Assembly: GCA_014382125.1 (NCBI GenBank)
Contig: JACNKI010000071.1
Coordinates: 1-38,178 of the forward strand
Length of the DNA: 38,178 nucleotides
Direction of reading: 5' to 3'
From: Bacteroidota bacterium
Lineage (GTDB): Bacteria > Bacteroidota > Bacteroidia > Bacteroidales > FEN-979
In this document: in pieces, positions 713 through 25,884 of the stretch
Numbering within the stretch: position 1 is the stretch's first letter
Layout of the letters: each line of letters opens with the position of its first letter
The notes under the pieces: model-generated
What the model was told of the DNA's origin: nothing
The model's input: only the letters and a program-made list of their open reading frames with translations
Database searches by the model: none
Position numbers and translations under genes: made by a program

Positions 713-3664
713 TCAGAATGTCACTCCCCATAGAAACCTCCATACCCATTGATCTTCATTAGGAAGAAATGCTCCCTGGACGCCCAGCTCAAACGGAGCC
801 AGGAACCTGAGGATGTGCATTTCGGATGTGAGTTCAAAGCCGGTGGAAAGACTTTCATGATTTTCATTGTGACCATACCCGTGTGCCCAGTCGCAGAAGA
901 GATTCAGTTTGAACCGTTTGATGTAGAGGAGAGAACCCAGGCTGACATCCAGCCGCAGGAAGGGAAATTTATAGTTTACCGACAAAGAGGTTAACTCTGG
1001 TGTGTATATCGCTTCTGTGCCACGTGGGAAGGCGATCAGGTTGGCAAACTTGTAACCGTAAACGAGGTTATCACATCTTCGCTGATATCCACCATAGATT
1101 CGAATTCCATGGTGTCGAAAGATACCCGGGAAATAGAGATTCCCTGAGATTCCAAAAACGGCTCCCATATCGTTCCCGACAAAGGGGGTATGCCGGTATT
1201 GTATGTCCAGGTTCTGTCCCCACTTTGGGTACATATCCTGATAATTCGACCGGAGATAGTTATACATGTATAGGCGGTAATCCAGGGTATTGATCGATCC
1301 TTTGGTAAACTTGTCAGGGGTTGTTTTATCATGGATCACATAGATCCATGAACTTCCGATCCGGGGTTGGATCCGCATGTACCATAAGCCCCGGGAGAGA
1401 TTCAGCGGGACGCTAATCGTCGCCTTGAGGTTGCTCTCATTCCAGGTATACCGGAACGTCTCACTGGTTTGGGAGTACTTGCCAGTTCCTGCACGTTTGC
1501 CATATGAATATCGCATATCAATCACCGGGAACCATCCCTCGTAGGAAAGATCGAGGTAAAATTTTCCGGTTCGTTCACTCAGATCATACTCGTAGCCGGC
1601 TCCGGCAAACATGGTGCTGAGAAGATTCTGGGAGAGAACCGAAACGCCCGGTTTCAGCGTTAGATTATTGGCATCAATGGAGACCGGCGCCCAGCTATGG
1701 ATGTTGAAGAGATGTGCGATCTTCTGATATCTGGTAACTGGATAACTGGATGACTGGATAACTGGATGAATCGAGTCATCGAGCATCGAGCATCGAGCAT
1801 TGAGTAACATGCTGTCCTGAATATTAACCCCTTCCTGCCTAGCCAACATTTCAGCCAACGCAAAGGGTTGTTGATGAATGCTGTCCAGGCGGATCCAACG
1901 GGAAGAATCGTTATCCCGTGAAACGACCATCATTCCATCAGCTCCATAATCGGAGTAGGTAAGCCTTTTTCCATCGGGAGAGATCGCCGGATCTGACGCC
2001 TGAAACCGGGCAGAGGTTACCTGGTAGATCTCCCGTGAAACAGTATCGATGGCATAGATATTTTCAATGCCTGAGTAATCTGCCGAAAAAAGCAGGTGGT
2101 TTTGGAAAAAGAGGGGAGGACCCCAGATTTCCCTGAAGGAAGGGGCGAGAATGGTCGTGGTATGTTGGTTCTTAAGATCCTCTATCTGAAGAGATTTCCC
2201 TTCACTGGTCAGGAGAATATAGGCAATCTTCTTTCTGTCAGGTGACCAGCTTGGCTCCAGTAAAAGCCCGTCGTCAGGGGCGGCAATGGATTGGAGGAGT
2301 TTTCCGGTTGTTGTTTCCAGGATATCGATAAAGGAGTGATTCTCCTCTGTGATCCTTACAGCCAGAATCCGTTCTCCATCAAACGACAATGCTGGCGCAA
2401 AATAACGGCTCTTCCGCGTTAACTCCTTAACACTACCTGCCTTCCATGCCTCTATGCCTATATGCCTTTGTCCCTTTGTTCCTCTGTCACGCTGTCCCTT
2501 ATTCCTCTTCTTCCGTATTTCTAATGACCGTATCACCGAATAACTCCTGTTCTCCCACCGGATGTCAGGCCTGTACTCGGTCCAGATCACCAGGTTCCCG
2601 GCAACAGAATGACTCCCAAGTTGATAAGCACCTAACCGGCAAAGATTCTCCTCCCGGCCTTCAGGACTCATCAACACCAATCGCCGTACACCTTCATTAC
2701 TCCATCTGGAAGCAATGTAGATGGAATCGTTCAGGAATTGTGGCCGGCTGTAGCTGGTATAGTCAGAGGCATCTGGTTTGGTGACACGACTAAAGGCAGA
2801 GCGCCAGGTAGAGTCCTCCTGCTGAAGCCAGGCGATCACAAGTTCTTCCATCACCTCTCTGTAGAAACCGGTTTTCCATAAACCCGTTTTTTGCTTGATG
2901 CCGGCATTGAAAGGGACAACCATAAACGGGAGCCGGGCTACCTTGTTCAGAGTGTGATTCCATAGCTCGTAGCCATATTTTTCCCTTCCTTTTGCTACCA
3001 GTTGGTATCCAAGCGTGTAGGCGTTGGGAGTGAATGTTTTGTAAGAACCCATTGTGGCGAGGTCGTAGGTGTAGATCCCTTTTTGTAGCAGTTGAGCCCG
3101 CAGAGGAGCAGAAAAAGAGGCGACCCTTCCACGACCTGAATTTGACAGTGCAGTCTCCGTTACCGTCGCATCTCCTTCCAAAAACCACTGAGGAAGGTAT
3201 AAACCCAGGACAGCACCCGCAGCCTGCTCCCCAAAAAGGTAGTATAAGGCTTTTGTAAATCCACGGTTCATCATGCTGGTTTGAACAGCATGCCGGTATT
3301 CATGAAGCGCCAGCTGCTCGAGCCACGGTTCAGCATAGATATCCTGTGGTGGGCATGAGTAGAGCTCTATCCGCCTGGGAGCCCATATTGTCATACCATT
3401 CGAAACAGTTGAATGGGAATGGATGATAAATGGCATCCGTGGGACTTTCGCTTGTAACGACTTCGTTTCAAATTTCGTTGTCAGGTTAAGAATCCTGGCC
3501 AGGGATTGGGCGTTGGATTCAAAACTGCAGGGAAAGATGATTTCAAAAGAATCGGTTTTGATCCGGCTCCAACGGATGGAAGCAGGATCCTGGCCGGTAG
3601 AAAAATATTGGCCTGAAACAGAAATGGTTAATCCCAGGAGAATTAGCAGAAAATATCGCTTCAT
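713..3664 (-). CDS. Large secreted/outer-membrane-associated TolB/WD40-like beta-propeller protein with an N-terminal peptidase-like region
   Basis: Signal peptide MKRYFLLILLGLTISVSG; HEYRHAVQ (HExxH-like); propeller repeats such as ISPDGKRLTYSDYG and WSPDRKKIAYI. Start chosen at MKRYF rather than the ORF-track start at 3700. Confidence 0.7.
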   Translation of the reverse strand: MKRYFLLILLGLTISVSGQYFSTGQDPASIRWSRIKTDSFEIIFPCSFESNAQSLARILNLTTKFETKSLQAKVPRMPFIIHSHSTVSNGMTIWAPRRIELYSCPPQDIYAEPWLEQLALHEYRHAVQTSMMNRGFTKALYYLFGEQAAGAVLGLYLPQWFLEGDATVTETALSNSGRGRVASFSAPLRAQLLQKGIYTYDLATMGSYKTFTPNAYTLGYQLVAKGREKYGYELWNHTLNKVARLPFMVVPFNAGIKQKTGLWKTGFYREVMEELVIAWLQQEDSTWRSAFSRVTKPDASDYTSYSRPQFLNDSIYIASRWSNEGVRRLVLMSPEGREENLCRLGAYQLGSHSVAGNLVIWTEYRPDIRWENRSYSVIRSLEIRKKRNKGQRDRGTKGQRHIGIEAWKAGSVKELTRKSRYFAPALSFDGERILAVRITEENHSFIDILETTTGKLLQSIAAPDDGLLLEPSWSPDRKKIAYILLTSEGKSLQIEDLKNQHTTTILAPSFREIWGPPLFFQNHLLFSADYSGIENIYAIDTVSREIYQVTSARFQASDPAISPDGKRLTYSDYGADGMMVVSRDNDSSRWIRLDSIHQQPFALAEMLARQEGVNIQDSMLLNARCSMLDDSIHPVIQSSSYPVTRYQKIAHLFNIHSWAPVSIDANNLTLKPGVSVLSQNLLSTMFAGAGYEYDLSERTGKFYLDLSYEGWFPVIDMRYSYGKRAGTGKYSQTSETFRYTWNESNLKATISVPLNLSRGLWYMRIQPRIGSSWIYVIHDKTTPDKFTKGSINTLDYRLYMYNYLRSNYQDMYPKWGQNLDIQYRHTPFVGNDMGAVFGISGNLYFPGIFRHHGIRIYGGYQRRCDNLVYGYKFANLIAFPRGTEAIYTPELTSLSVNYKFPFLRLDVSLGSLLYIKRFKLNLFCDWAHGYGHNENHESLSTGFELTSEMHILRFLAPFELGVQGAFLPNEDQWVWRFLWGVTF
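1735..1805. repeat. In-CDS composite array: ATAACTGG octamers followed by ATCGAGC heptamers
   Basis: TAACTGG ATAACTGG ATGACTGG ATAACTGG ... ATCGAGC x3 ATTGAGT. Confidence 0.85.
2437..2508. repeat. In-CDS octamer array, 9 units (72 bp = 24 codons)
   Basis: CTGCCTTC CATGCCTC TATGCCTA TATGCCTT TGTCCCTT TGTTCCTC TGTCACGC TGTCCCTT ATTCCTCT. Confidence 0.85.
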
Positions 3665-11875: not shown

Positions 11876-12693
11876 TCGGGGGGTGAGGTGATTTGATCCT
11901 CAACGCCGGGGGGTGAGGTGATATGATCCTCCATGCCAGGGGGTGAGGTGAGTTCTCTTTCAATCCGTTCATGCACCAGATTCGCTAGCTGTTTTGGTTC
12001 CAGGTGTTTAAAGGATTGATAGGGAATAGGTTCGAGGATTACCACTTGCATGTTGTGCTGTTTGGAGATCAGAAAGCCTCCTTTTTTAATTGCATGGGAG
12101 GTTCCTTTGATCACGATAGGAAGGATGGGTGAATGGGTGTCGAGTGCCAGGTGAAAAGCGCCTGATTTAAAAGGCTGCAACCGGCCGTCTTTGGAACGGG
12201 TTCCTTCCGGAAAGATCATCATCGAATTGCCATTGTATAATGCTTCACGGGCTTTTTCCATCATCCGGTGCATGCTCGACTTTTTGCCTCTGCGGAGAGC
12301 GATGTACTGGTTCATTGCCATGTTCCAGCCGATGAATGGGAAGAAGAATAGGGAGCGTTTGGACACCCATTTAAAGTGAATTCGAGGGGTAAAGAGAACC
12401 AGGATATCCGCCCCCGATTGATGGTTAGAAACGATGACATAGGTGGCTTTGCGATCAATGTTTTCTTTGCCCGATATATGTAACTTCCACATGGGATTTA
12501 ACCAGAACACGATATTCGACCAGATGCAGGAGAATTGATGCGTTAGATATCTCCTTCTGTCAAATGGGAATGTCACAAGCCAGATTATCAATGCGACTGG
12601 AAACAATATAGCAGAGCTTCCGAACATCTCTACCCAGAAATACACCGATATGATATATGTTCCTAGTTTTTTAATACTTCCTCCATTTCTCAA
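11863..12693 (-). CDS. plsC: 1-acyl-sn-glycerol-3-phosphate acyltransferase
   Basis: NHQSGADILVLF (HxxxxD) and MMIFPEGTRSKDG motifs. The C-terminus is encoded by a 30-bp tandem repeat. Confidence 0.87.
   Translation of the reverse strand: MRNGGSIKKLGTYIISVYFWVEMFGSSAILFPVALIIWLVTFPFDRRRYLTHQFSCIWSNIVFWLNPMWKLHISGKENIDRKATYVIVSNHQSGADILVLFTPRIHFKWVSKRSLFFFPFIGWNMAMNQYIALRRGKKSSMHRMMEKAREALYNGNSMMIFPEGTRSKDGRLQPFKSGAFHLALDTHSPILPIVIKGTSHAIKKGGFLISKQHNMQVVILEPIPYQSFKHLEPKQLANLVHERIERELTSPPGMEDHITSPPGVEDQITSPPDPLS
11877..11955. repeat. 30-bp tandem repeat, about 2.6 copies (CGGGGGGTGAGGTGATNTGATCCTC...GC)
   Basis: Units at 11877-11906 and 11907-11936, partial at 11937-11955; translated as ITSPPGxED repeats. 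Confidence 0.9.
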
Positions 12694-15675: not shown

Positions 15676-15713
15676 AGATTTACAATTTGCGATTTTCTCA
15701 CTATTTTACCATT

Positions 15714-15753
15714 TCACCAACTCACCAGTTCACCAGCTCGCCAATTCACCATC
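15714..15753. repeat. Octamer array, 5 units: TCACCAAC TCACCAGT TCACCAGC TCGCCAAT TCACCATC
   Basis: Exact 8-bp period, read directly; ends at the first base of the stop codon of the PASTA gene. Confidence 0.85.
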
Positions 15754-19464: not shown

Positions 19465-20691
19465 TTAGAAATTGTATGTTAAACCGATACCGGGAATATA
19501 GATTTGGCTCTTGTATGTGCCGGAGAAGTTCTCCGGGCTATAGGTGCCTTCCCGTTCCAATCCCATCACATATAGAAACGCAGCATCGATACTGAATCCT
19601 TTGAACGGAAATACAGATAATCCTGCTGTGAGTCCGATTTGATTCATGCTCGGTGTCTGTGGATTGAGAAAACCATCCGGTACGGGTGTAGGATCAAAAT
19701 ACCCACCCAACCTTGCCGTGATGATTTTGTTGATCTTGTACTGAAAACCAATACGTGGGATCAGCTTGTTCTCATACATGGCCGGTGCCACTGTTTGATC
19801 GAGGGTAGCTGTTTTAGTTTTAAAGTCGAATACCAGCGTATCATAAGCATTCCAGAAGACATAACAGAGGTTGATCCCGATCAGGAATTTTTCTTTAATC
19901 TCATAGGAGATGCCAAAGTCAAGGTTTGCCGGAAGAGGTAATGATGTAGAAACCTTCGTGTCAGGAAAACTTGATTGAAGGGCAGACGGAACGCTAAAGG
20001 TGGCATCGCCTTCATCAACCTTCATGTTGATCCGCGAACGATAACTCACTCCAATATCCAACCCTTTGACAGGCCGGACAAAGATCCCGCCGTTAAATCC
20101 GACGTTGTATGCGTTTCCGGTAATTGTAGCTTTCCCTTCGGTACCATTCTGTCCCTCAAGTGGTAACGCTTTGTTAAGTTCCACGTTACCGAATGCAAGC
20201 ACAAGGCCAAAACCGATACCGAAGACATCTTTGATCTTGTAAGAGAAAGAGGGCTGAACAGTAATGGCTTTGAAAGCCAGGTCCTGAATCAGGTAACGCC
20301 CCTGCCAGGTTTCTCCCCAGGATAATTTGTTGCCGTATGGCGTATTCACAGCAATCCCGATACTAAGGTCATCAAAGGGTTTAAACGCTGCATAAAAGTA
20401 TAAAGGAGTGTTGAGGATATTGTCGATGTTGTATTGGCCCATCACATCCTTTGGCTGGAAAGTCGTCCGGGCCATCAGCAGGCTGACACCTCCTGAGAAG
20501 CTGAATTTAGACGATACAAAAGCCATCGCACCAGGATTATAAAAGATGCTGCTTGCATCATACGCCAGGGAGGTTCCAATCAAACCCATCCCAATGTTAC
20601 GCATGCTATGCAAACTCACCTGGTAACCACCGCCGAAAGTTGTGGTTACTGCCAGACAGATACCCAGCAGTAAAGCTGTAAATCTCCGCAT
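19465..20691 (-). CDS. OmpP1/FadL-family outer membrane transporter
   Basis: GGGYQVSLHSMRNIGMGLIGTSLAYDASSIFYNPGAMAFV; beta-strand pattern; GTYKSQIYIPGIGLTYNF C-terminus. Confidence 0.85.
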   Translation of the reverse strand: MRRFTALLLGICLAVTTTFGGGYQVSLHSMRNIGMGLIGTSLAYDASSIFYNPGAMAFVSSKFSFSGGVSLLMARTTFQPKDVMGQYNIDNILNTPLYFYAAFKPFDDLSIGIAVNTPYGNKLSWGETWQGRYLIQDLAFKAITVQPSFSYKIKDVFGIGFGLVLAFGNVELNKALPLEGQNGTEGKATITGNAYNVGFNGGIFVRPVKGLDIGVSYRSRINMKVDEGDATFSVPSALQSSFPDTKVSTSLPLPANLDFGISYEIKEKFLIGINLCYVFWNAYDTLVFDFKTKTATLDQTVAPAMYENKLIPRIGFQYKINKIITARLGGYFDPTPVPDGFLNPQTPSMNQIGLTAGLSVFPFKGFSIDAAFLYVMGLEREGTYSPENFSGTYKSQIYIPGIGLTYNF

Positions 20692-20788: not shown

Positions 20789-20900
20789 ATCGAGTATCGA
20801 GCACCGAGCATCCAGCATCGAGCATCGAGCATCCAAAATCGAGCATCCAGCATCGAGCATCGAGCATCCAACATCGAGTATCGAGTATCGAGCATCCAAT
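20789..20900. repeat. Degenerate heptamer array, 16 consecutive units of ATC[G/C]A[G/A]N (112 bp)
   Basis: ATCGAGT ATCGAGC ACCGAGC ATCCAGC ATCGAGC ATCGAGC ATCCAAA ATCGAGC ATCCAGC ATCGAGC ATCGAGC ATCCAAC ATCGAGT ATCGAGT ATCGAGC ATCCAAT, with no phase slip. Confidence 0.97.
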
Positions 20901-20907
20901 TAATTAG

Positions 20908-20915
20908 TACTTTTG
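20908..20915 (+). promoter_or_regulatory. Bacteroidota -7 box TACTTTTG just downstream of the heptamer array
   Basis: TAnnTTTG match 20 nt before the ATG at 20935. Confidence 0.55.
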
Positions 20916-20934
20916 CGCCTTAAAATTATCGAGA

Positions 20935-21639
20935 ATGAAACTAAGCGTTGGAGATAAAGTAAAATACCTGAATGCTACAGGAGGAGGTGTTGTCACGAAG
21001 GTGATCGACAGCAAGATGGTAATGGTTTCGGATCAGGATGGATTTGAGATTCCGACCCTGATAAGCGAGCTGGTCAGGATCGTTCACGAGGAGGCAGGAG
21101 CCAGGTTTTTTAATGAACGTTTTGAGACACCATCAAATCCGGAGAATGATCATGGAAAAGTGCGTTCTGAGGAAGAGGAACTTCAGCTGGAATCCCTTGA
21201 TCCACGCTTGATAAGAAACCGTAAGTCCGAGGATATCTACCTGGCATACGTCCCTCACGATCAGAAGTGGCTGATCACAGGCCTGGTAGATATCTATCTC
21301 ATTAACAACACATCTTTTGATCTGATCTATAACCTTTTTCACCGAATTACCCGGGACCAATACAGGGGAATCGATTACGGCTCACTCTACGCTAATACCC
21401 GATATCTGTTGGATACGGTCAGCCGTGAAGATCTTAACCTGTGGTCTGATGGATCCCTTCAGTTTCTCTTTCATAAAGAACAACTGAATAATGTTCTTCC
21501 CCCATTTAATTCAGATTTTAGAATCGAGGGAAAGAAATTTCATAATGAAGGAGCCTACCGCGAATCTCCACTAATCAGAGAGAAAGGGATTATTGTCAAG
21601 GTGGTCTCACTAAGTGACTATCTGCTAGAGAAGGAATAA
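20935..21639 (+). CDS. DUF2027-like protein lacking the usual C-terminal Smr domain
   Basis: MKLSVGDKVKYLNATGGGVVTKVIDSKMVMVSDQDGFEIPTLISELVRI resembles the N-terminus of Bacteroidota DUF2027/Smr proteins; the ORF stops at 234 aa. Confidence 0.7.
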   Translation: MKLSVGDKVKYLNATGGGVVTKVIDSKMVMVSDQDGFEIPTLISELVRIVHEEAGARFFNERFETPSNPENDHGKVRSEEEELQLESLDPRLIRNRKSEDIYLAYVPHDQKWLITGLVDIYLINNTSFDLIYNLFHRITRDQYRGIDYGSLYANTRYLLDTVSREDLNLWSDGSLQFLFHKEQLNNVLPPFNSDFRIEGKKFHNEGAYRESPLIREKGIIVKVVSLSDYLLEKE

Positions 21640-24216: not shown

Positions 24217-24305
24217 ACGTAGGGACGTAGGGATGTAAGGAAGTAGGGACGAGGTTCAAGATTCAAATATCCAGTTATCCAGTTATCCAGGATCAAGCAT
24301 CAAAC
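24217..24305. repeat. Composite array: four ACGTAGGG-type octamers (24217-24248), then ATCCAGTT/ATCCAGG/ATCAAGC/ATCAAAC units (24269-24305)
   Basis: Periods of 8 then 8/7, read directly; overlaps the metK stop codon. Confidence 0.8.
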
Positions 24306-25643
24306 GTTAAAAGCTTTTTTCAATCTCTCTACGTAATCCAGCTTCTCCCAGGCAAAGAACTCTACCTTTTTCAGGTAAATATCTTTGTTGAGGCCATTCC
24401 CTTTTTTCGCTTTAGATCCTTTCACCGGATAATAAACTTCAATGGTTTTCGTGTATGGATCCCGTCCTAAATGCCCGTAAGATGCGGTAGGCAGAAAAAT
24501 AGGATTCTTCAGACCGAATCGTTCAATGATGGAAAATGGTCGCATGTCAAAGACCTTATTGATCTTCTCAGCGATCTTGCCATCAGTGAGTGTTCTGCCC
24601 TTTTTATCTGTAACTTTTGCTGTTCCCAATGTATCGACGTAAAGTCCGACCGGTTGGGCTATACCAATTGCATAGGCAACCTGGATCAGCACTTGATCGG
24701 CAATGCCTGCTGCCACCATATTTTTGGCAATATGGCGTGCTGCATAGGCTGCTGAACGGTCAACTTTCGAAGGATCTTTCCCGGAAAAAGCACCGCCACC
24801 ATGTGCCCCATGGCCACCGTATGTGTCGACAATGATTTTACGACCGGTTAAACCGGTATCGCCGTGAGGTCCCCCGATCACAAATTTTCCGGTCGGATTC
24901 ACAAAAAGTTTGTAATCATCTGAAAAAAGCCTCTTTACTCGGGCCGGTAATGTCTTCTTCGCCCTGGGGATCAGGAATTGTTCCACATCTTCGCGGATCT
25001 TATCCTGCATCTCTTTTTCTGCTGTTTTCAAAGCCCTGGCCCCTTTGTTTCTAGGGAGAATAAAATCATCATGCTGAGTGCTGATCACGATCGTATCGAT
25101 CCGTTTTGGTTGACCCTTATCATCGTATTCAATCGTTACCTGTGATTTGGAATCGGGTCTCAGGTATTTCATTTTTCGTCCTTCCCTGCGAATGGCAGCC
25201 AGTTCCTGTAGCAGAATATGAGCTAATTCACTTGAGAGAGGCATTAAGTTGTCCATCTCACGGCAGGCATAACCGAACATCATGCCTTGGTCACCGGCTC
25301 CTTGATCTTCTTTTTTTTCTCTTACAACTCCCTGGTTAATATCAGATGATTGTTCATGAATAGTTGAAATGACCCCGCATGAATCGCTATCGAAACGGTA
25401 TTCAGCCTTTGTATATCCAATATCCCGGATTACTCGTCGTACCGTCTCCTGAACATCCACCCAGCCTTCCGTACGAACTTCTCCACCACATACCACAAGG
25501 CCGGTAGTAACAAAGGTTTCACAAGCAACTTTGGATTCTGGATCCCAGCGTAAAAATTCATCAAGTAATGCGTCCGATATCTGATCGGCAACTTTATCCG
25601 GATGCCCTTCGGAAACTGACTCCGATGTAAATAAAAATCCCAT
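24300..25643 (-). CDS. metK: S-adenosylmethionine synthase
   Basis: [80 protein letters not shown]. Confidence 0.97.
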
Positions 25644-25710
25644 AATCTGAATGTCTTTAGTTTTGATTTAGTTAACTTACGAAAGGGAAGGGATTTGATA
25701 GTTGGAATGG

Positions 25711-25764
25711 CTATTGGTTTAGCATTTTTTCCAGTGGTTGCAATCAATCAAATCTTTCCACCCT
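25711..25764 (-). ncRNA. Candidate SAM-II riboswitch aptamer in the metK 5' leader
   Basis: Minus-strand AGGGUGGAAAGAUUUGAUUGAUUGCAACCACUGGAAAAAAUGCUAAACCAAUAG. P1 GGUGG/CCACU; pseudoknot UGC(A)/(A)UGC... and AUUG/CAAU; conserved-looking GAUUU, AUUGCAA and GCUAAA blocks; upstream of metK. Confidence 0.78.
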
Positions 25765-25771
25765 GCAAGTG

Positions 25772-25836: not shown

Positions 25837-25884
25837 AATGCAGGAATGCAGGAATGCATTTTTACGTCTCACGTCTCACGTTTT
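25837..25884. repeat. Composite array: AATGCAGG octamers (25837-25860) and ACGTCTC heptamers (25864-25884)
   Basis: AATGCAGG AATGCAGG AATGCATT ... ACGTCTC ACGTCTC ACGTTTT; the second part overlaps the gldA-like stop codon at 25876. Confidence 0.75.

What the first reader, a model, noticed from the sequence alone, without database searches (positions are those of the whole stretch)
20789..20900. 16-unit uninterrupted heptamer array directly upstream of a -7 promoter box
112 bp = 16 x 7 with no phase slip. Units alternate between ATCGAGN and ATCCANN types, so it is not a simple homogeneous microsatellite. It ends 7 bp before TACTTTTG, so it occupies the -33 region of the DUF2027-like gene. Unit gain or loss could move upstream elements by 7 bp and change expression.
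Basis: partly seen in the sequence, partly recalled or inferred. Interest (0 to 1): 0.62.

Follow-up and report, generated by a model that had tools for sequence, protein, structure and literature searches.

The report
Genome-wide heptamer repeat beside a promoter
The 16-unit, 7-base repeat is real, but it is one of hundreds of fast-changing 7- and 8-base repeat arrays scattered through the genomes of this uncultured Bacteroidales family; close relatives carry different repeats, or none, at the same promoter, so a dedicated on/off switch is unlikely, although the arrays obey an unexplained strand rule.

Summary
Observation confirmed: 112 bp (20789-20900), 16 heptamers in register, ending 7 bp before TACTTTTG, far beyond chance. 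The unit types do not alternate regularly. Interpretation only partly supported. TACTTTTG is a real Bacteroidota -7 box, conserved upstream of the DUF2027 gene across the family, but no -33 element is seen there and the array is not conserved. At the same promoter, relatives carry unrelated 7/8-mer arrays (GCACCACT, CTCATCCC, GTCCGCCC, CACCCGTT) or none. The unit ATC[CG]A[GA][CT] recurs at about 30 loci of this genome. Across nine sampled family genomes, intergenic DNA is full of period-7/8 arrays (almost no period 4-6) with a vocabulary shared between genera. At orthologous gaps arrays recur (odds ratio 3.7), but the word is shared in only 11 of 94 cases. Neighbouring arrays have strict polarity: G-rich then C-rich in 63 cases, the reverse in 5, including inside genes, without complementarity, without GGG tracts, and in genomes with no detected reverse transcriptase. 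The same polarity is known for G-quadruplex heptamers of Xanthomonas/Nostoc. Best reading: a rapidly turning-over STRR-type array in tolerated space next to a core promoter; a mild unit-number effect on expression remains untested.

The parts
20789..20900 (+). 16 x 7-bp array, unit ATC[CG]A[GA][CT], C-skewed on the strand that reads into the DUF2027 gene (C 33, G 24)
20908..20915 (+). TACTTTTG, Bacteroidota -7 box (TAnnTTTG) of the DUF2027 gene; the 7 bp between array and box (TAATTAG) match the A/T-rich stretch common before -7 boxes in this family
   Evidence: conserved in orthologs; 385 of 933 5' regions against 67 in shuffles
20927..20933 (+). one isolated ATCGAGA heptamer, not in register with the array, just before the start codon
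   Evidence: sequence
20935..21639 (+). DUF2027 gene (234 aa); shorter than relatives, without their C-terminal Smr-like part
19465..20691 (-). divergent OmpP1/FadL/TodX outer-membrane protein gene; the array lies in the divergent gap
   Evidence: Pfam PF03349
1726..1804 (.). arrays of the same vocabulary (GATAACTG octamers, then ATCGAGC heptamers; on the sense strand GCTCGAT then ATCCAGTT) inside a loop of a 983-aa PD40 gene (713-3664, minus strand); other species of the genus have other arrays or repeat-free inserts at the same loop
1..40 (.). ATCCAG(C/G/TT) array; the contig begins in it
15698..15752 (.). CACCA[GA]TT/CACCATTT octamer array at an intergenic site where three other genera carry the same octamer family
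24217..24290 (.). convergent pair: G-rich octamer array (ACGTAGGG), 16 bp, C-rich octamer array (TATCCAGT)
25837..25881 (.). convergent pair: AATGCAGG octamers then ACGTCTC heptamers

Best explanation
The array is one member of a genome-wide population of short tandemly repeated arrays (STRR/LSSR type, period 7 or 8) that are gained, lost and replaced quickly in this Bacteroidales family. SHOWN: the same heptamer is dispersed over about 30 loci of this genome; dozens of other 7/8-mer words coexist; the same intergenic sites tend to hold arrays in different species, but usually with a different word; arrays tend to leave core promoters intact and have a fixed strand polarity (C-rich strand reading toward the neighbouring gene; in adjacent pairs, G-rich array then C-rich array). 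INFERRED: arrays grow and shrink by slippage or unequal exchange in 7/8-bp steps, and words spread between loci by copying from existing arrays (ectopic recombination or repair synthesis). Here the array invaded the loosely constrained stretch between the FadL and DUF2027 promoters and stops at the A/T-rich tract before the -7 box because selection keeps that tract and the box. Any effect on DUF2027 transcription is probably mild and incidental.
For: Same unit at 82 positions (61+21) of a 21-mer pattern in this genome, 0 for the reversed control pattern, as 28 perfect runs of 3 or more units in the fetched part, 18 of them intergenic. Intergenic autocorrelation: in G000, lag 7 gives 196 hits per 10 kb against 5-6 at lags 4-6 and 0 in Markov sequence; similar excess at lags 7 and/or 8 in the other sampled family genomes. 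Word sharing between loci: 105 within-genome and 145 between-genome pairs against 3.5 and 8.4 with letters shuffled. Same promoter, different arrays in relatives. Orthologous gaps: both arrays 94, one 175, none 289, odds ratio 3.7; related word in only 11 of 94 (random pairing 4.2). Arrays relative to the -7 box: upstream 46, between box and start codon 10, overlapping 2. Patchy presence inside one genus (G018 600 hits, G015 0).
Against: Array length polymorphism within the species could not be shown (one draft MAG per species). The strand polarity is not predicted by plain slippage and needs an extra cause. Recurrence at the same sites could mean a site-specific function rather than mere permissiveness. 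The spreading step is inferred only.
Confidence: 0.72

Rival explanations
1. Promoter rheostat, the first reader's idea: 7-bp unit gain or loss changes helical phasing or distance of upstream elements and so tunes DUF2027 expression (contingency-locus type).
For: The array ends 7 bp before a conserved -7 box and covers the -33 region; relatives G005 and G003 also have arrays directly upstream of their -7 box.
Against: No -33 TTG and no conserved upstream element in orthologs; arrays absent in three of five same-genus species; words differ; the same arrays lie near stop codons and inside genes.
Confidence: 0.13
2. Scars of a 3'-end extension process: at a break or gap both 3' ends are extended with G-skewed 7/8-nt repeats (polymerase slippage, template jumping onto other arrays, or a telomerase-like enzyme) and then joined, giving 'G-rich array, short spacer, C-rich array'.
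For: 63:5 polarity of adjacent opposite-skew pairs (p 8e-14), 10 of the 63 inside genes; 53 of 57 intergenic pairs have a gap of 60 bp or less; paired words unrelated, so each side is extended on its own; in the PD40 gene loops the first array often resembles repeats of the flanking sequence.
Against: In divergent promoters such as G007 and G030 the two arrays flank a conserved promoter, so they are not one break; the array-rich g4 genomes G018, G008, G021, G024 have no RVT_1 hit and none of 61 genomes has Ku, so no telomerase-like or classical NHEJ enzyme was found; the target array is single-sided.
Confidence: 0.09
3. Binding sites for a sequence-specific DNA- or RNA-binding regulator, as proposed for TAACTGA repeats in Beggiatoaceae.
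For: The same unit occurs at many loci, often near gene starts.
Against: At orthologous sites the word is usually replaced by another (83 of 94); dozens of words per genome; here the array is upstream of the -7 box, so it is not in the mRNA leader.
Confidence: 0.05
4. Assembly or binning artefact.
For: Draft MAG, 243 contigs, 84% complete; one contig end lies in an array.
Against: Comparable arrays in many independently assembled genomes of the family, including a 300-kb contig; the array is interior to a 38-kb contig and shorter than a common short read.
Confidence: 0.01

Closest known systems
GGGNATC / GGGGA(C/T)T heptamer repeats of Xanthomonas and Nostoc (Rehm et al. 2015, PMC4692102)
   Same: 7-bp units dispersed over the genome, mostly intergenic, within about 50 bp of gene ends and often overlapping stop codons; G-rich strand antisense before starts and sense after stops; convergent inverted pairs (70-75 per genome)
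   Different: One G-quadruplex-forming word, 83% of sites shared between two Xanthomonas species; here dozens of words, mostly without GGG tracts, paired words not complementary, words replaced between species, also in coding loops
STRR sequences of heterocystous cyanobacteria and long simple sequence repeats of 5-11 nt (Calothrix and Mrazek 2007, as cited in PMC4692102 and PMC4679880)
   Same: Dispersed heptanucleotide arrays with several variant units; heptamers the commonest class; slippage proposed
   Different: Other sequences, other phylum; octamers equally common in several genomes here
TAACTGA direct repeats of Beggiatoaceae, Cyanobacteria and some Bacteroidetes (MacGregor 2015, PMC4679880)
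   Same: Heptamer direct repeats, intergenic, patchy between genera, some Bacteroidetes
   Different: Unit differs; those lie in mRNA leaders next to start codons, this array is upstream of the -7 box
Tandem repeats of Borg elements (PMC9879509)
   Same: Many different fast-evolving tandem repeats in intergenic regions and genes
   Different: The Borg examples read have longer units (18-21 nt) that are perfectly repeated; here 7/8-nt degenerate units
DRT10 telomerase-like reverse transcriptase (PMC12632851)
   Same: Enzymatic synthesis of short tandem-repeat DNA in bacteria, considered as a possible source
   Different: Needs an RT and an ncRNA; the array-rich g4 genomes here have no RVT_1 hit

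Membership tests
Dispersed heptameric STRR/LSSR arrays | head-to-tail 7-bp units | tested here: met
Dispersed heptameric STRR/LSSR arrays | same unit at many loci of one genome | tested here: met
   (82 hits, control 0)
Dispersed heptameric STRR/LSSR arrays | mainly intergenic | tested here: met
   18 of 28 runs intergenic although most of the genome is called coding
Dispersed heptameric STRR/LSSR arrays | copy number varies between strains | not testable with these tools
   one genome per species held; between species arrays come and go
G-quadruplex heptamer repeats (Rehm 2015) | GGG tracts able to form a quadruplex | tested here: not met
   units contain no GGG or CCC
G-quadruplex heptamer repeats (Rehm 2015) | G-rich strand antisense near starts, sense near stops; convergent pairs | tested here: met
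   family-wide: 47:15 against 33:98 within 30 bp (p 3e-11), 39:12 against 28:71 without GGG/CCC; pairs 63:5. The target array itself is C-skewed toward the gene (33:24) and unpaired
Phase-variable promoter SSR (contingency locus) | array between promoter elements or between promoter and an activator site | tested here: not met
   wholly upstream of the -7 box; no -33 TTG and no conserved upstream element
Phase-variable promoter SSR (contingency locus) | unit-number change alters expression | not testable with these tools
   needs reporters or reads
TAACTGA leader repeats | unit TAACTGA directly upstream of the start codon in the leader | tested here: not met
   unit ATC[CG]A[GA][CT], upstream of the -7 box
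Telomerase-like RT product (DRT10) | cognate reverse transcriptase in array-bearing genomes | tested here: not met
   G018, G008, G021, G024 have no RVT_1 match

The most novel reading that the evidence does not exclude
The arrays are footprints of an undescribed DNA-end or gap repair process in Bacteroidota that extends 3' ends with G-skewed 7/8-nt tandem repeats copied from a genome-wide vocabulary, and then joins the ends, leaving convergent but non-complementary array pairs that recur at the same sites with new words.
Probability: 0.1. Interest if true: 0.8.

Novelty: new variant of a known kind. Interest (0 to 1): 0.45.

Why it matters
Heptamer arrays with this strand polarity were explained in Xanthomonas and Nostoc by G-quadruplexes. 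Here the same polarity holds for words without GGG tracts, without complementarity between partners, and inside genes. This points to a more general cause (mutational or selective) and makes it testable. It also shows that in such genomes an array next to a promoter is not evidence of a switch, because about a third of gaps of 80 bp or more carry one.

Tried and rejected
Simple microsatellite noise: rejected by lag-7 statistics. Known RNA element: Rfam found only a SAM-II riboswitch elsewhere in the window. Hairpin pairs: the complementarity of partner arrays equals within-genome shuffles (84 of 300 as good or better). G-quadruplex: polarity persists without GGG/CCC. Gene-calling artefact for the 3' polarity: in-gene arrays at 3' ends are also G-skewed (0:11; 0:14), and pair polarity does not use gene calls. 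Start/stop-codon selection alone: the polarity at stops does fade beyond about 12 bp and sense leaders are poor in start codons, so it may contribute, but it does not explain the same order inside genes. Reverse-transcriptase origin: array-rich genomes without RVT_1. Ku-dependent end joining: no Ku in 61 genomes. No strain-level data were available.

Full report
OBSERVATION. The array is as described. Positions 20789-20900 are 16 heptamers in one register. TRF scores it highest in the window, and its lag-7 periodicity (83 of 105) far exceeds 200 Markov windows (maximum 49). The two unit types do not alternate regularly. TACTTTTG (20908-20915) follows after 7 bp, and the ATG of the DUF2027 gene (PF09640) is at 20935. 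On the other side lies a divergent FadL/OmpP1 gene.

THE PROMOTER IS REAL, THE -33 STORY IS WEAK. Orthologs of the DUF2027 gene in the family, including five in the same genus, have TAnnTTTG upstream of the start while the rest of the gap is unalignable. In the nine sampled genomes of the family TAnnTTTG lies 12-120 nt before 385 of 933 genes with a 5' region of at least 70 bp, against 67 after shuffling. The bases just before it are A/T-rich, as in TAATTAG here, and TTG is enriched at -22/-23 in only about 15% of promoters. The target has no TTG there. So the array does sit in the -33 region, but no conserved element is displaced.

NOT A CONSERVED PART OF THIS PROMOTER. At the same place G005 has about six TGCACCAC octamers, G003 CTCATCCC-type octamers, G020 and G014 GTCCGCCC-type octamers, G030 CACCCGTT, G035 GCGTGAC; G001, G002 and G004 of the same genus show no 7/8-mer array detected by TRF.

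A GENOME-WIDE FAMILY. A 21-base pattern of three units hits 82 times in this genome and never in the reversed control. In relatives it is patchy: 600 hits in G018, 0 in G015 of the same genus. In 396 genomes of the phylum a stricter 28-mer is found in 10. In sampled DNA of the family, intergenic sequence shows strong self-similarity at lags 7 and 8 and their multiples, some at 9, and almost none at 4-6; an outgroup genome (G055) lacks it and another (G060) is dominated by period 10. Words are shared far beyond chance: 105 within-genome and 145 between-genome pairs against 3.5 and 8.4. Examples are ATCCAGC, TTACGAT and CACCAGTT.

TURNOVER AT FIXED SITES. Among orthologous gaps on syntenic contigs, arrays co-occur more than expected (94 both, 175 one, 289 none; odds ratio 3.7, comparisons not independent), but a related word is present in only 11 of 94 (4.2 by random pairing). 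From 80 bp upward, 30-39% of gaps carry an array. In the window's PD40 gene (713-3664, minus strand) two loops that are short in other genera carry inserts in all species of the genus for which that part is held, mostly different 7/8-mer arrays in each species.

STRAND POLARITY. Within 30 bp of gene ends arrays are C-skewed in sense at 5' ends (47:15) and G-skewed at 3' ends (33:98), p 3e-11, and this holds without any GGG or CCC (39:12 against 28:71, p 2e-8). It is strongest for arrays overlapping the stop codon (49 G, 9 C). Independently of gene calls, adjacent arrays of opposite skew are ordered G-rich then C-rich in 63 cases and the reverse in 5, with 10 of the 63 inside genes. Partner words are no more complementary than within-genome shuffles. 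Rehm et al. (PMC4692102) described the same placement and convergent pairs for quadruplex-forming heptamers; here neither quadruplexes nor hairpins can be the general reason. The target array is C-skewed toward DUF2027 (33:24) and unpaired.

MECHANISM. Most likely: slippage or unequal exchange in 7/8-bp steps plus copying of words between loci, with selection protecting core promoters and reading frames. The polarity is unexplained. Codon-level selection may contribute at gene ends, and 3'-end extension followed by joining would give the pair order, but the array-rich genomes G018, G008, G021 and G024 have no detected reverse transcriptase, no genome has Ku, and some pairs flank a conserved promoter.

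LIMITS. All genomes are treated as drafts (many contigs each); gene calls were made with a simple hexamer ORF caller in the Python box; TRF thresholds set what counts as an array; comparisons between species are not independent; no strain-level data. Mrazek 2007 and the Calothrix STRR work are cited through PMC4692102 and PMC4679880. The -7/-33 promoter grammar of Bacteroidota is from general knowledge.

Noticed in passing
window 25709-25767 (-): SAM-II riboswitch (RF01726, 61.9 bits) upstream of the minus-strand gene at 24300-25643.
   Followed up: no
window 20935-21639: The DUF2027 protein is 234 aa; orthologs run to 350-371 aa with a C-terminal Smr-like part (sub-threshold Pfam hit in G005). 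That part is not found in the window or in the other fetched contigs of this genome.
   Followed up: partly
window 713-3664 (-), loops near 1726-1804 and around residues 381-409: Two loops of a PD40 propeller protein carry in-frame inserts, mostly 7/8-mer arrays, that differ between the species of the genus; other genera have short loops.
   Followed up: yes
L230 (G005 ortholog of the PD40 gene), first loop: Instead of an array, a palindromic insert (TTACTCCCCCTTTAGGGGGTTGGGGGGTAAG) that looks like a REP/MITE-type element.
   Followed up: no
window 15698-15752: CACCATTT/CACCAGTT octamer array at a site where three other genera have the same octamer family: one of the few persistent words.
   Followed up: partly
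window 11877-11951: 2.5 copies of a 30-bp repeat at the 3' end of a predicted acyltransferase gene (in frame).
   Followed up: no
G060, sampled intergenic DNA: A genome of another family in the order is dominated by period-10 instead of period-7/8 intergenic arrays.
   Followed up: no
all sampled family genomes: Arrays very often overlap the stop codon of the upstream gene (61 cases, mostly G-skewed and stop-bearing in sense), so gene ends may be rewritten by arrays.
   Followed up: partly
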